DNA of 22,924 nt from a virus. The stretch is from the IMG/VR virus record IMGVR_UViG_3300042568_000414, positions 1 through 22,924 of that record; one strand, 5' to 3'. The notes under the pieces are model-generated. The model was not told where the DNA came from. It did not search any database and was given only the letters and a program-made list of their open reading frames with translations. Shown piece by piece: positions 6,578 to 9,738 of the stretch. A program made the translations under genes and the position numbers. Numbering within the stretch: position 1 is the first letter of the stretch; each line of letters begins with the position of its first letter.

Positions 6578-7900
6578 ATGCCTCTCCCCTCCGCCATCGA
6601 CGCGGAACGCCATCTCCTCGGCGTCCTCCTGCGCGATGCTCTCCCTCTCCCCGAAGGCCTGATCCCTTCGGACTTCTACGAGCCCAAGCATCAGGACACG
6701 GCCGCCTGTATCCTAGCCGTCTGCGAAGCCGGCGTCCCGCCTGACGAGTTGGTCGTGACCAACAAGCTGCGCGAGGCCAAGTCTACCGCCGAAGCCCACT
6801 ACATCTCCGAACTGACAACGACCGTCGGCTCGTCCCTGCTCAACCCGGGCTGGGCCGACCTCATCAAGCGCAAGGCCGCCCTCCGCCAGATCAGCCTCAC
6901 CGCGTCCCGCCTGCTCGCCCACGCTAACGAGGAAGACGCCGACCCCGAAGCCCTGGTCGCCTTCACCGAGGGCTCACTCAAGGCAGACAATAGGGGGAAG
7001 AAGGTATCTGGTCCGACGCGCATGGACTTTGACGCGCTCATGTCCTTCAAGCGCAAGGAAGACCCTACCTGTGTCCTTGGGTCAAACCGTTGGCTATGCA
7101 AGGGCGGGTCCATGCTCATCGTCGGCCAGTCCGGCACGGGCAAGTCGTCCCTGATGATGCAGGCCGCCGTCCATTGGTGCACAGGTCGTGACTTCTTCGG
7201 CATCAAGCCTGCCAAGCCCCTACGAGCCGTCGTGCTCCAGGCTGAGAATGACGCGGGCGACATCTCCGAGGCCTTGCAGGACGTCATCGCCGGGGCATAC
7301 CTCGACAGCGACGAGAAGGCCACCCTCCGCGATCACCTCGCCATCTACCGCGACACCGTCAGCACCGGCACGACCTTTACCGCCGCCTTGCGTCAGCTCA
7401 TCATCGACCAACGCGCCGACATCGTCTTCATCGACCCGCTGCTCTCCTTCGCGGGCATCGACGTCTCCGATCAGGAGCAGGCGTCCAAGTTCCTGCGCCA
7501 CGACCTCGCCCCCATCCTCCTTGAGACAGGCGCCGTCCTCGTGGCCATGCACCACACCGGGAAGCCCAAGGCCGCCTCCGACAAGGAAGGCCACACCGTC
7601 GCCGACCTAGCCTATGCTGGCCTAGGCTCCTCCGAGTTCACCAACTGGTTCCGCGAGGTCGCCGTCCTCTTCCGATGCCAGGGCGAAGAGCCGATCTACA
7701 AGTTCGGCCTGACCAAGCGCCGCGGCCGTGCCGGTCTCAAGGACGGTAACGGCCAGTTTAAGCCAGAGATTAATATTCGCCACGCCGCGGAGAAGGGGGT
7801 CATCCGATGGGAGTATGCCCATGCCCCCGCCGAGGTAGTCCAACAGGATGCCATTTCCAGCCCCGCCAAGGCCGCTCCTAGGCAGGATGGAGGCTACTGA
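6578..7900 (+). CDS. Replicative DNA helicase (DnaB-type N domain with RecA-like core)
   Basis: This 440-residue protein should unwind the phage replication fork. Residues 5-85 match the DnaB N-terminal domain: AIDAERHLLGVLLRDALPL, SDFYEPKHQDTAACIL and AHYISELTTTV. The core has Walker A GQSGTGKSS at 183-191, a QAEN motif at 221-224 where the catalytic Glu is expected, Walker B DIVFIDP at 281-287, and MHHTGKP at 324-330. The core features look closer to RepA/RSF1010-type (AAA_25) hexameric ATPases than to canonical DnaB. No primase domain is present. The leader of 47 bp contains CAATTTGACC and a C-rich tract. The candidate origin region lies directly downstream. Confidence 0.85.
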   Translation: MPLPSAIDAERHLLGVLLRDALPLPEGLIPSDFYEPKHQDTAACILAVCEAGVPPDELVVTNKLREAKSTAEAHYISELTTTVGSSLLNPGWADLIKRKAALRQISLTASRLLAHANEEDADPEALVAFTEGSLKADNRGKKVSGPTRMDFDALMSFKRKEDPTCVLGSNRWLCKGGSMLIVGQSGTGKSSLMMQAAVHWCTGRDFFGIKPAKPLRAVVLQAENDAGDISEALQDVIAGAYLDSDEKATLRDHLAIYRDTVSTGTTFTAALRQLIIDQRADIVFIDPLLSFAGIDVSDQEQASKFLRHDLAPILLETGAVLVAMHHTGKPKAASDKEGHTVADLAYAGLGSSEFTNWFREVAVLFRCQGEEPIYKFGLTKRRGRAGLKDGNGQFKPEINIRHAAEKGVIRWEYAHAPAEVVQQDAISSPAKAAPRQDGGY

Positions 7901-7972
7901 GGGGGAAGACCGCCTCAAACGACCTAAACGCCTTACAAGCCAAGCCAGACCCATGAACCCACCCACCCGACC

Positions 7973-8008
7973 AGACAACTTGCAAGACAAGTCGCAAGAC
8001 AGCATAGT
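7973..8008 (+). repeat. 12-bp iteron-like tandem repeats
   Basis: AGACA occurs at 7973, 7985 and 7997, exactly 12 bp apart. The first two full units, AGACAACTTGCA and AGACAAGTCGCA, agree at 10 of 12 positions; the third, AGACAGCATAGT, keeps the AGACA core and then decays. Short direct repeats of this kind next to a replication gene resemble iterons bound by an initiator, but the copy number is low. Confidence 0.45.
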
Positions 8009-8041
8009 ATCAGTAGGGAGTATATACTCCCTACATGATAC
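8007..8041 (+). repeat. Near-perfect 35-bp palindrome
   Basis: The inner 22 bp (8013-8034) are a perfect palindrome with half-site GTAGGGAGTAT. It is flanked by GTATCA at 8007-8012 and TGATAC at 8036-8041, with one unpaired A at 8035, so the symmetry extends to almost 35 bp. The centre is TATA. Long dyads like this are typical of operators for dimeric repressors or of origin hairpins. The adjacent helix-turn-helix proteins are possible binders. Confidence 0.7.
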
Positions 8042-8109
8042 ACGCAGATGCCTTTGCGTCGCTTACGCTCGCTCGGCCCTGCGGTTTTTCTGCAAGCAAT
8101 TTGACCGCC

Positions 8110-8472
8110 ATGAGTAACCCAAGCCGGCCGAGAAGACGTAAGATGACCGCGGCTCGTCGGAAGCACCTGATCGCGGAGAAGCAGAAGTTTGCCGAGAAAT
8201 GGCTGACCGATAGACCTGGCATGATCAGGCGCTGCGAAGCCGGAGGCGAGGCCACCGCAGACAAGGCTAAGGTACGAAGGGAGGTCGTGGAGGGTTGGCT
8301 GACTACCATGCCGCTCCGCATGACCAAGGCTCAGCTGGTGAAGGAGTTCAAGGCCCGCATGACCGGGGACCGTGACGTCCAACCTCGTTCCCTCATCGAG
8401 AAGATGCGAATCTACGGCAGGATCAAGTACGACGAGACGACAGGCCTGTGGACGAACATGACCAAGGCCTAA
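8110..8472 (+). CDS. Basic, probably DNA-binding phage protein
   Basis: This 120-residue protein is very basic in its first 30 residues (MSNPSRPRRRKMTAARRKHL). A helical region follows: KQKFAEKWLTDRPGMIRRCEAGGEATADKAKVRREVVEGWL. The C-terminal part reads RSLIEKMRIYGRIKYDETTGLW and could be a winged helix. The open frame extends upstream to 8035, but that would translate the palindrome and the non-coding stretch, so the ATG at 8110 is preferred. CAATTTGACCGCC precedes it, the same CAATTTGACC string found in the helicase leader at 6533-6542. The function is unknown; DNA binding or regulation is suggested by charge and by its place next to the palindrome. Confidence 0.6.
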   Translation: MSNPSRPRRRKMTAARRKHLIAEKQKFAEKWLTDRPGMIRRCEAGGEATADKAKVRREVVEGWLTTMPLRMTKAQLVKEFKARMTGDRDVQPRSLIEKMRIYGRIKYDETTGLWTNMTKA

Positions 8473-8517: not shown

Positions 8518-9051
8518 ATGGCGAAACAACTGCACGACCTTGAGGCTCCTCACAAGGACGCCCGGTCGTTCGATGCTTGGTTCTTCGGACTGCCCAAGGC
8601 ACAGCAGGACAAGCTGCGGGAAGGCGGCGTGCTTCCCTACCGCGAGATGGTCCAGCCTCGCCGCGTCTGCGAGGTCCAACCTTGGCGGCGCATCTGGAAC
8701 TCGACCGAGCAAGAGCAGCGCATGGAGACGGATTCGTTCATCAGCCGCGAACACGTCGGCGCAATGCTCAAGGCCTTCATCGACGCGCTGGCCATGACCG
8801 ACGAGTACTCGGTGCGCCGGCACGTCGAGCTCGTCAGGTGGGCGCTCGACCTACCCGGCTGTCTGCCCGCGCCTGACATCGCTCGGATGTATGACGTGAG
8901 CAAGCAAGCGATCCACAAAAGAGCGAAGCTGATGCGCGAGCAGTTCACTCCTGATGCGCTGGGCGAGTGGACCGGGCAACACGCCACGACTGCTGCTCAA
9001 ACCGTGGCGAAAAACTTGCGGAAACCTGCGAAAACAAAGGGAAAACGATGA
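8518..9051 (+). CDS. Helix-turn-helix protein upstream of terminase
   Basis: This 177-residue protein carries a clear helix-turn-helix near residues 117-140: PAPDIARMYDVSKQAIHKRAK, where MYDVSKQAIHKR fits a turn plus recognition helix as in sigma region 4 or LuxR-like domains. The N-terminal 60 residues contain WFFGLPKAQQDKLREGGVLPYRE, and the C-terminal tail is Lys-rich (KNLRKPAKTKGKR). It lies directly before the small terminase, a common place for late-gene activators, and could be what reads the repeated motif in front of structural genes. That link is speculation. A small-terminase paralogue is another possibility. The 45-bp gap before it contains an imperfect inverted repeat (GGCCTAAGGTTTGC with GCAACCTAAGCC). 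Confidence 0.65.
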   Translation: MAKQLHDLEAPHKDARSFDAWFFGLPKAQQDKLREGGVLPYREMVQPRRVCEVQPWRRIWNSTEQEQRMETDSFISREHVGAMLKAFIDALAMTDEYSVRRHVELVRWALDLPGCLPAPDIARMYDVSKQAIHKRAKLMREQFTPDALGEWTGQHATTAAQTVAKNLRKPAKTKGKR

Positions 9052-9179
9052 GAAACGCCCCAAACACCCCCCGCCAAGGAATCTCTTCCGAACGGCCGTT
9101 TTCGTGCGTGGCCTGCCACAGCCTCAAAATGATGCGTGTCTCGTTGACACAAAACCCCCGTTTAAATGGGCCAGCCTGA
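9048..9179 (+). CDS. Possible 43-residue protein, unknown
   Basis: An ATG at 9048 overlaps the stop of the helix-turn-helix gene as ATGA, the junction style of this genome, and the frame runs to a TGA 14 bp inside the small terminase gene. The product has a CVACH cluster in its middle. It fills an otherwise non-coding gap of 114 bp. Against it, codon use looks less typical and the sequence is A- and C-rich. It could equally be a leader for the terminase operon. Confidence 0.3.
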   Translation: MRNAPNTPRQGISSERPFSCVACHSLKMMRVSLTQNPRLNGPA

Positions 9180-9738
9180 AGCCCTGACGACCAAGGCCTT
9201 AGCCGCGGCGATCGGCGTGAGCGTGCAGCGCGTGGGCGTTCTTCGCCGCGAAGGGATGCCGACCGAATCGGTCGAAGCGGCGACTGCGTGGCGGGAAGCC
9301 CGGGCGGCCGAGCGTGCCGCGTCTGCTCCCGTGCCGGCCGTGGCCTCGCTCGACGACGGAACGATCCAGCAGCGCATCGCCAGACAGAACGTCCTGGTCA
9401 GCCGAGCCCGTGACGTCTGGCAGGCGGCGATGGAAACGGGCGACCGCGACCAGGCTAAGTACCACACGCAGTATAACCAAGCGACCGCCAAGCTCATCGA
9501 CCTAGAGGCCGAGGCGGAGCGTCGAGCGCTGATGGCCCGCGAGTATATCAAATCGTCAGAGGCAAAGGAGGCGATGCTCCAGCTGACGGGCGAATGGATC
9601 GAAGCGATGGAGCGGATGCCCAGTGAGCTCGGCGAGGCATGCAACCCTAACGATCCGCCCAAGGCCATCGCCGTCTTGCAGGCCTACGTCCGCAAGGTGC
9701 GGGAAAAACTCAGCGGCCATGACGAAGCGCAAGCCTAA
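9166..9738 (+). CDS. Terminase small subunit
   Basis: This 190-residue protein should recognise the packaging site and guide the large subunit to it. Residues 7-40 form a winged helix-turn-helix like the N terminus of lambda Nu1: LTTKALAAAIGVSVQRVGVLRREGMP, followed by a helix rich in Ala, Arg and Glu. The middle (residues 60-130) is a long helical region suited to oligomerisation. The location immediately before the large terminase agrees with the usual order. The start at 9166 is inside the preceding short frame, so overlap or misannotation of that frame is possible. The DNA target is unknown; a cos or pac site would be expected near this gene but none is evident. Confidence 0.75.
   Translation: MGQPEALTTKALAAAIGVSVQRVGVLRREGMPTESVEAATAWREARAAERAASAPVPAVASLDDGTIQQRIARQNVLVSRARDVWQAAMETGDRDQAKYHTQYNQATAKLIDLEAEAERRALMAREYIKSSEAKEAMLQLTGEWIEAMERMPSELGEACNPNDPPKAIAVLQAYVRKVREKLSGHDEAQA

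What the first reader, a model, noticed from the sequence alone, without database searches (positions are those of the whole stretch)
7973..8041. Iteron-like repeats beside a near-perfect 35-bp palindrome after the helicase gene
Three AGACA cores at exact 12-bp spacing run into a dyad whose inner 22 bp are perfectly symmetric and whose outer GTATCA/TGATAC arms extend the symmetry. This lies in the only stretch of about 200 bp without a gene, directly after the replicative helicase. The combination suggests a replication origin or a master operator.
Basis: partly seen in the sequence, partly recalled or inferred. Interest (0 to 1): 0.65.

Follow-up and report, generated by a model that had tools for sequence, protein, structure and literature searches.

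The report
Conserved twin-hairpin element after phage helicase
Just after the helicase gene of an uncultured tailed phage lies a short non-coding element, three 12-base repeats followed by two hairpins, whose shape is preserved in many related phages although most of its sequence has changed, which marks it as functional and perhaps as the start point of the phage's DNA replication.

Summary
Three AGACA cores sit at exact 12-bp spacing (7973, 7985, 7997), and 8013-8034 is the only perfect palindrome with arms of 9 bp or more in the window. The outer arms are offset by one base (A8035). The same unit, 12-nt repeats then SL1 then SL2, sits between the helicase stop and a small winged-helix gene in about 100 distinct relatives. 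In the closest relatives it is 94-100% identical, against 82-86% for the helicase gene. In distant ones the stem sequences are replaced but still pair, and loop symmetry is lost. This rejects an ordinary two-fold operator and favours a single-strand structure. Covariation is significant on a sequence-only alignment, and a covariance model built from another group picks out the window's SL2. Folding, wobble pairs and loops favour the minus strand. The best functional reading is a replication-origin-type element, like the RSF1010 and pRN1 stem-loop origins. A structured RNA is nearly as likely and could not be excluded. GC skew gives no origin signal. Clustered contig ends suggest the packaging end is about 1.1 kb away, so this is not cos.

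The parts
6578..7900 (+). Replicative helicase gene (DnaB-like N-terminal domain plus AAA_25 ATPase) directly before the element
   Evidence: Pfam AAA_25 5.6e-24, DnaB 4.8e-9; phrog_19 DnaB-like helicase 7.1e-18
7971..8006 (.). Three 12-bp direct repeats (CCAGACAACTTG, CAAGACAAGTCG, partial CAAGACAGCATA) abutting SL1
   Evidence: 12-nt period recurs in relatives with different unit sequence: mean lag-12 identity 0.49 against about 0.28 at other lags, best lag in 16 of 28 variants
8007..8041 (.). Stem-loop 1: 8007-8012 with 8036-8041, 8013-8021 with 8026-8034, loop 8022-8025, extra A8035
   Evidence: replaced by other complementary stems in relatives
8043..8083 (.). Stem-loop 2, irregular: 8043-8047 with 8079-8083, 8050-8052 with 8075-8077, 8056-8058 with 8070-8072, apical GC-TTAC-GC 8061-8068
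   Evidence: covariation in group 2; found by a covariance model built without it
8110..8472 (+). Small basic protein with predicted C-terminal winged-helix fold; its family follows the element in the relatives; candidate binding protein
   Evidence: AlphaFold pLDDT 87.4; no significant PDB match; two uncharacterised phage proteins at E below 1e-3

Best explanation
The feature is one conserved cis-acting element of about 115 bp: an array of 12-bp direct repeats followed by two adjacent hairpins that work as single-strand structures, most likely on the minus strand. Inferred mechanism: it is the phage's replication origin. A phage protein (candidate: the winged-helix product of 8110-8472) binds the repeats, the neighbouring helicase is loaded and opens the duplex, and the exposed minus-strand hairpins are recognised to position priming, as stem-loops do in RSF1010 and pRN1. 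Shown here: the repeats, their conserved period, the two hairpins, their conservation and covariation, and their fixed place. Inferred: that the acting molecule is ssDNA rather than RNA, the minus strand, the binding proteins, and origin function.
For: Fixed position after the helicase and before the winged-helix gene in 105 distinct intergenic sequences from about 200 loci, including relatives whose helicase is fused to a primase-type N-terminus (L150: phrog_2597 DNA primase 7.3e-48). Element 93.6-100% identical while the helicase gene is 82-86% (96% in the closest relative) and the leader just upstream falls to 59% in L028. Covariation on a sequence-only alignment: 94% paired against 86.6% in shuffles, 0/500, slid controls 21-55%. 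An independent model finds the window SL2, one copy per genome, in 303 kb. Conserved 12-nt period with changing unit. Minus strand folds better in RNA and DNA parameters (44 of 53), holds 50 against 9 wobble pairs (about 27 against 9 distinct sites), and many of its loops are cGNNAg or cGNAg, a pattern I recall as stable in ssDNA. Published parallels: PMC4234260 and PMC4434180.
Against: No GC-skew inflection at or near it in near-complete genomes; not AT-rich; no separate primase found among the window genes searched; a matching repeat on the right side was tested and not supported; wobble counts and folding energies do not tell RNA from ssDNA; the minus-strand preference is partly due to purine-rich loops; several loops do not fit GNNA and the group 2 loop can be paired in two registers.
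Confidence: 0.44

Rival explanations
1. A structured RNA: either the leader of the winged-helix mRNA (translational or put-like antitermination control at the early/late boundary) on the plus strand, or a short antisense RNA on the minus strand.
For: Conserved irregular hairpin with bulge and internal loops, compensatory changes; SL2 ends only 26 nt before the start codon of 8110; two stem-loops with one unpaired base between them is also the layout I recall for HK022 put RNA; GNRA-type loops on the minus strand.
Against: No Rfam family matches; all evident genes lie on the plus strand but folding favours the minus strand; no obvious minus-strand promoter or terminator was seen on reading the flanks; third loop base is not limited to purine as GNRA would be (GTCA, GTTA, GCCA, GCTA).
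Confidence: 0.38
2. Transcription terminator at the end of the early operon (intrinsic, or Rho-dependent through the C-rich leader).
For: SL2 is followed by GTTTTT in the window group; the leader is C-rich and G-poor (mean C 0.39, G 0.16 over 28 variants).
Against: No U-tract after SL2 in the other groups; mean C-over-G bias is below the 99th percentile of the genome; a terminator does not need conserved internal loops or 12-nt repeats.
Confidence: 0.09
3. A two-fold symmetric operator for a dimeric repressor or activator.
For: Perfect 22-bp palindrome, HTH genes downstream.
Against: Palindrome sequence is replaced by different complementary stems with asymmetric loops in relatives (ATAC, TTAAT, TTTA, TTC); SL2 is not a palindrome but is equally conserved; single copy per genome.
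Confidence: 0.05
4. Packaging (cos/pac) site.
For: Repeats plus dyad near terminase genes; five relatives' contigs end inside or near the element.
Against: Contig right ends cluster 1113-1247 bp after the helicase and left ends 604 or 613 bp before terminase large, placing the probable end at about window 9119-9236.
Confidence: 0.02

Closest known systems
pRN1-type stem-loop origin (Sulfolobus plasmids, phage BIP-1; PMC4234260)
   Same: Non-coding stem-loop directly 3' of the replication gene, structure conserved while sequence changes; a winged helix is part of the replication apparatus
   Different: One large stem-loop of about 100 nt without iterons and an archaeo-eukaryotic primase with SF3 helicase, against 12-nt repeats plus two hairpins and a DnaB/AAA_25 helicase here
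RSF1010 oriV with ssiA/ssiB (PMC4434180, PMC4234260)
   Same: Direct repeats, a separate helicase, short single-strand hairpins of about 40 nt
   Different: ssiA and ssiB lie one on each strand and are read by the plasmid's own primase; here both hairpins favour the same strand, repeats are 12 bp, no separate primase was identified
HK022 put antiterminator RNA (from memory, not read)
   Same: Two adjacent stem-loops separated by one base
   Different: Acts on the transcribed strand near early promoters; here folding favours the opposite strand and the place is the end of the early region

Membership tests
pRN1-type stem-loop origin | Stem-loop 3' of the replication gene with structure conserved beyond sequence | tested here: met
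pRN1-type stem-loop origin | Replication protein with archaeo-eukaryotic primase, SF3 helicase and winged helix | tested here: not met
   window helicase is DnaB-N plus AAA_25; so not filed as a member
pRN1-type stem-loop origin | Stem-loop required for replication | not testable with these tools
   needs deletion and complementation
RSF1010-type iteron plus ssi origin | Array of direct repeats next to hairpins | tested here: met
RSF1010-type iteron plus ssi origin | One ssi hairpin on each strand in opposite orientation | tested here: not met
   loops and wobbles of both hairpins favour the same strand
RSF1010-type iteron plus ssi origin | Cognate primase recognises the hairpin | not testable with these tools
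   no separate primase recognised by Pfam or PHROGs among the window early genes scanned; relatives such as L150 carry a primase-type N-terminus
Dimeric operator | Sequence-conserved symmetric half-sites | tested here: not met
Intrinsic terminator | Hairpin followed by U-tract in all relatives | tested here: not met
   only in the window group
Known Rfam RNA | Match above gathering score | tested here: not met
cos/pac site | Coincides with genome ends | tested here: not met

The most novel reading that the evidence does not exclude
A so far undescribed family of twin hairpins, conserved in structure but not in sequence and preceded by a 12-nt repeat array, serves as a single-strand-recognised replication origin in a large group of uncultured tailed phages, coupling a winged-helix initiator to a DnaB/AAA_25 helicase.
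Probability: 0.38. Interest if true: 0.7.

Novelty: new variant of a known kind. Interest (0 to 1): 0.52.

Why it matters
Replication origins of most environmental tailed phages are unknown and cannot be found by sequence similarity. An element with a fixed place, a fixed repeat period and a covarying two-hairpin shape gives a concrete, mutable target, and a covariance model to locate it in metagenomic phages. If it is an RNA instead, it is a new phage RNA family absent from Rfam.

Tried and rejected
Right-hand copy of the repeat after SL2: looked convincing by eye, but direct-repeat scores do not beat shuffled flanks (p=0.48). G-quadruplex or R-loop reading of the C-rich leader: G4 motifs on the minus strand in 9 of 28 leaders and also elsewhere in the genomes, not distinctive. 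Rho loading: bias not extreme. cos site: contig ends lie 1.1 kb away. Generic terminator sequence: the SL2 24-mer occurs in viral contigs only in this family. GC skew as origin marker: almost uniformly negative, uninformative. The arm-swap test used hand-picked arms, so its 100% pairing is by construction; I rely instead. MAG relatives of the helicase do not carry a recognisable copy.

Full report
What is there. The window is a 22,924-base IMG/VR virus record of a tailed phage; evident genes run on the plus strand. The helicase gene ends at 7900 and the next gene starts at 8110. Three AGACA cores at exact 12-bp spacing (7973, 7985, 7997) run into a dyad. Its 22-bp core, 8013-8034, is the only perfect palindrome with arms of 9 bp or more in the window. 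The outer GTATCA/TGATAC arms pair, but with one extra base, A8035. The region folds far better than shuffles: z -5.9 plus-strand RNA, -4.3 minus-strand RNA, -5.0 DNA.

Conservation. The exact 22-mer occurs in 15 other viral contigs. From helicase-based searches I collected 199 helicase 3' ends with 105 distinct downstream sequences. In the closest relatives the element is 94-100% identical while the helicase gene is 82-86% identical (96% in the closest one, L003) and, in L028, the leader just upstream is 59% identical. Close variants keep the stem but change it on both sides: GTAGGGAGT-atat-ACTCCCTAC becomes GTAGGGAAT-atac-ATTCCCTAC, and in L028 GTAGGGGT-ttaat-ACCCCTAC, with the outer arm GTATCA/TGATAC changed to GTATCT/AGATAC. 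The central symmetry of the window copy is therefore probably accidental; what is kept is a helix with a loop.

Distant relatives. In groups with 40-73% helicase identity the place is the same but the sequence is not readily alignable: repeats such as CTCAACTTCCAA, CTCAAGGTCCGA or TACTTCCGTCAC, then a first hairpin, then a longer irregular hairpin with an outer helix, a small bulge or loop, a short helix, an internal loop and an apical loop. The 12-nt period is itself conserved: mean identity at lag 12 is 0.49 against about 0.28 at most other lags, and 12 is the best lag in 16 of 28 variants. On a sequence-only alignment of group 2 SL2, 94% of cells pair against 86.6% after shuffling (0 of 500 as high), the covariation score is 0.203 against 0.083 (0 of 500), and slid controls fall to 21-55%. 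A covariance model from that group alone found, in 303 kb, its own group, L041, and exactly the window-type SL2 (window 8044-8082 and three relatives), one copy per genome; the E-value is weak (4.6) but the position is right in all four.

Which strand and which molecule. Minus-strand folds are more stable in nearly all of the 28 variants (mean z -4.7 against -3.9) and in 44 of 53 sequences with DNA parameters. Minus folds contain 50 wobble pairs, plus folds 9; counted as distinct sites about 27 against 9. Minus-strand loops are often cGNNAg or cGNAg: GTAA, GTCA, GTTA, GCCA, GCTA, GAGA, GTA, GAA. The third base is not restricted to purine, which fits the stable DNA loop pattern I recall better than RNA GNRA loops. 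Exceptions exist (TTTA, TAAA and others in SL1, TCCA and CTAA in SL2) and in group 2 the apical pairing has two registers, so this is suggestive only.

Neighbours. The gene after the element encodes a small protein with a basic N-terminus and a predicted C-terminal winged helix; its family accompanies the element, has no match in the annotated phage collection, no significant PDB match and matches only uncharacterised uncultured-phage proteins. Some relatives (L146, L150) have a longer helicase; the one tested against PHROGs, L150, matches a primase family, and the element still follows. Searches give helicase, Erf-like annealing protein, exonuclease, RuvC-like resolvase and a kinase, but no separate primase among the window genes scanned.

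Function. A repeat array plus structure-conserved hairpins beside the helicase resembles two experimentally studied origins: pRN1, where a stem-loop 3' of the replication gene is conserved in structure but not sequence and is required for replication, with a similar one reported in a phage (PMC4234260), and RSF1010, where a repeat-binding protein and a helicase expose short hairpins used for priming (PMC4434180; PMC4234260). I therefore prefer an origin-type element, at 0.44. It fails defining features of both families (different replication proteins; hairpins not on opposite strands), so I do not file it as a member of either. A structured RNA is almost as likely (0.38). No GC-skew inflection supports the origin.

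Genome ends. In relatives, contig right ends cluster 1113-1247 bp after the helicase (about 30 of 75; group 1 at 1220-1222) and left ends 604 or 613 bp before the large terminase gene. The packaging end is therefore probably in window 9119-9236 and complete genomes are about 29 kb, but an assembly cause for the breaks is not excluded. The element lies about 1.1 kb inside the right end.

Noticed in passing
window 9119-9236: Probable physical genome end (cos-like) just upstream of or at the start of the small terminase gene: many relatives' contigs stop or start at the same offsets; contigs G005, G011, G015 look like end-to-end genomes of 28.9-29.2 kb, and G018 holds two large-terminase copies 28,230 bp apart. 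An assembly cause is not excluded.
   Followed up: partly
window 8518-9051: Second small gene (177 aa) before the genome end with an HTH-like segment (IARMYDVSKQAIHKRAKLMR); no Pfam or PHROG match below 0.01; possible late regulator.
   Followed up: no
L146, L150 helicase genes: Relatives replace the DnaB-like N-terminus by a longer one; in L150 it matches a PHROG primase family, while the 3' element stays.
   Followed up: partly
window about 2021, 4409, 7968, 13573: G-quadruplex motifs occur only on the minus strand in the window and in the relative genomes checked (2-5 each).
   Followed up: no
Genome contigs L277-L283: Distant helicase relatives (35-45% identity) lie in MAG contigs of Verrucomicrobia, Planctomycetota and Lentisphaerae, and the nearest isolated-phage terminase is that of Verrucomicrobia phage P8625: the host is probably in the PVC group.
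   Followed up: partly
L054, L079, L062, L035, L039: Five relative contigs end within about 110-210 bp after the helicase, at or near the hairpins, perhaps an assembly break at the structure.
   Followed up: no
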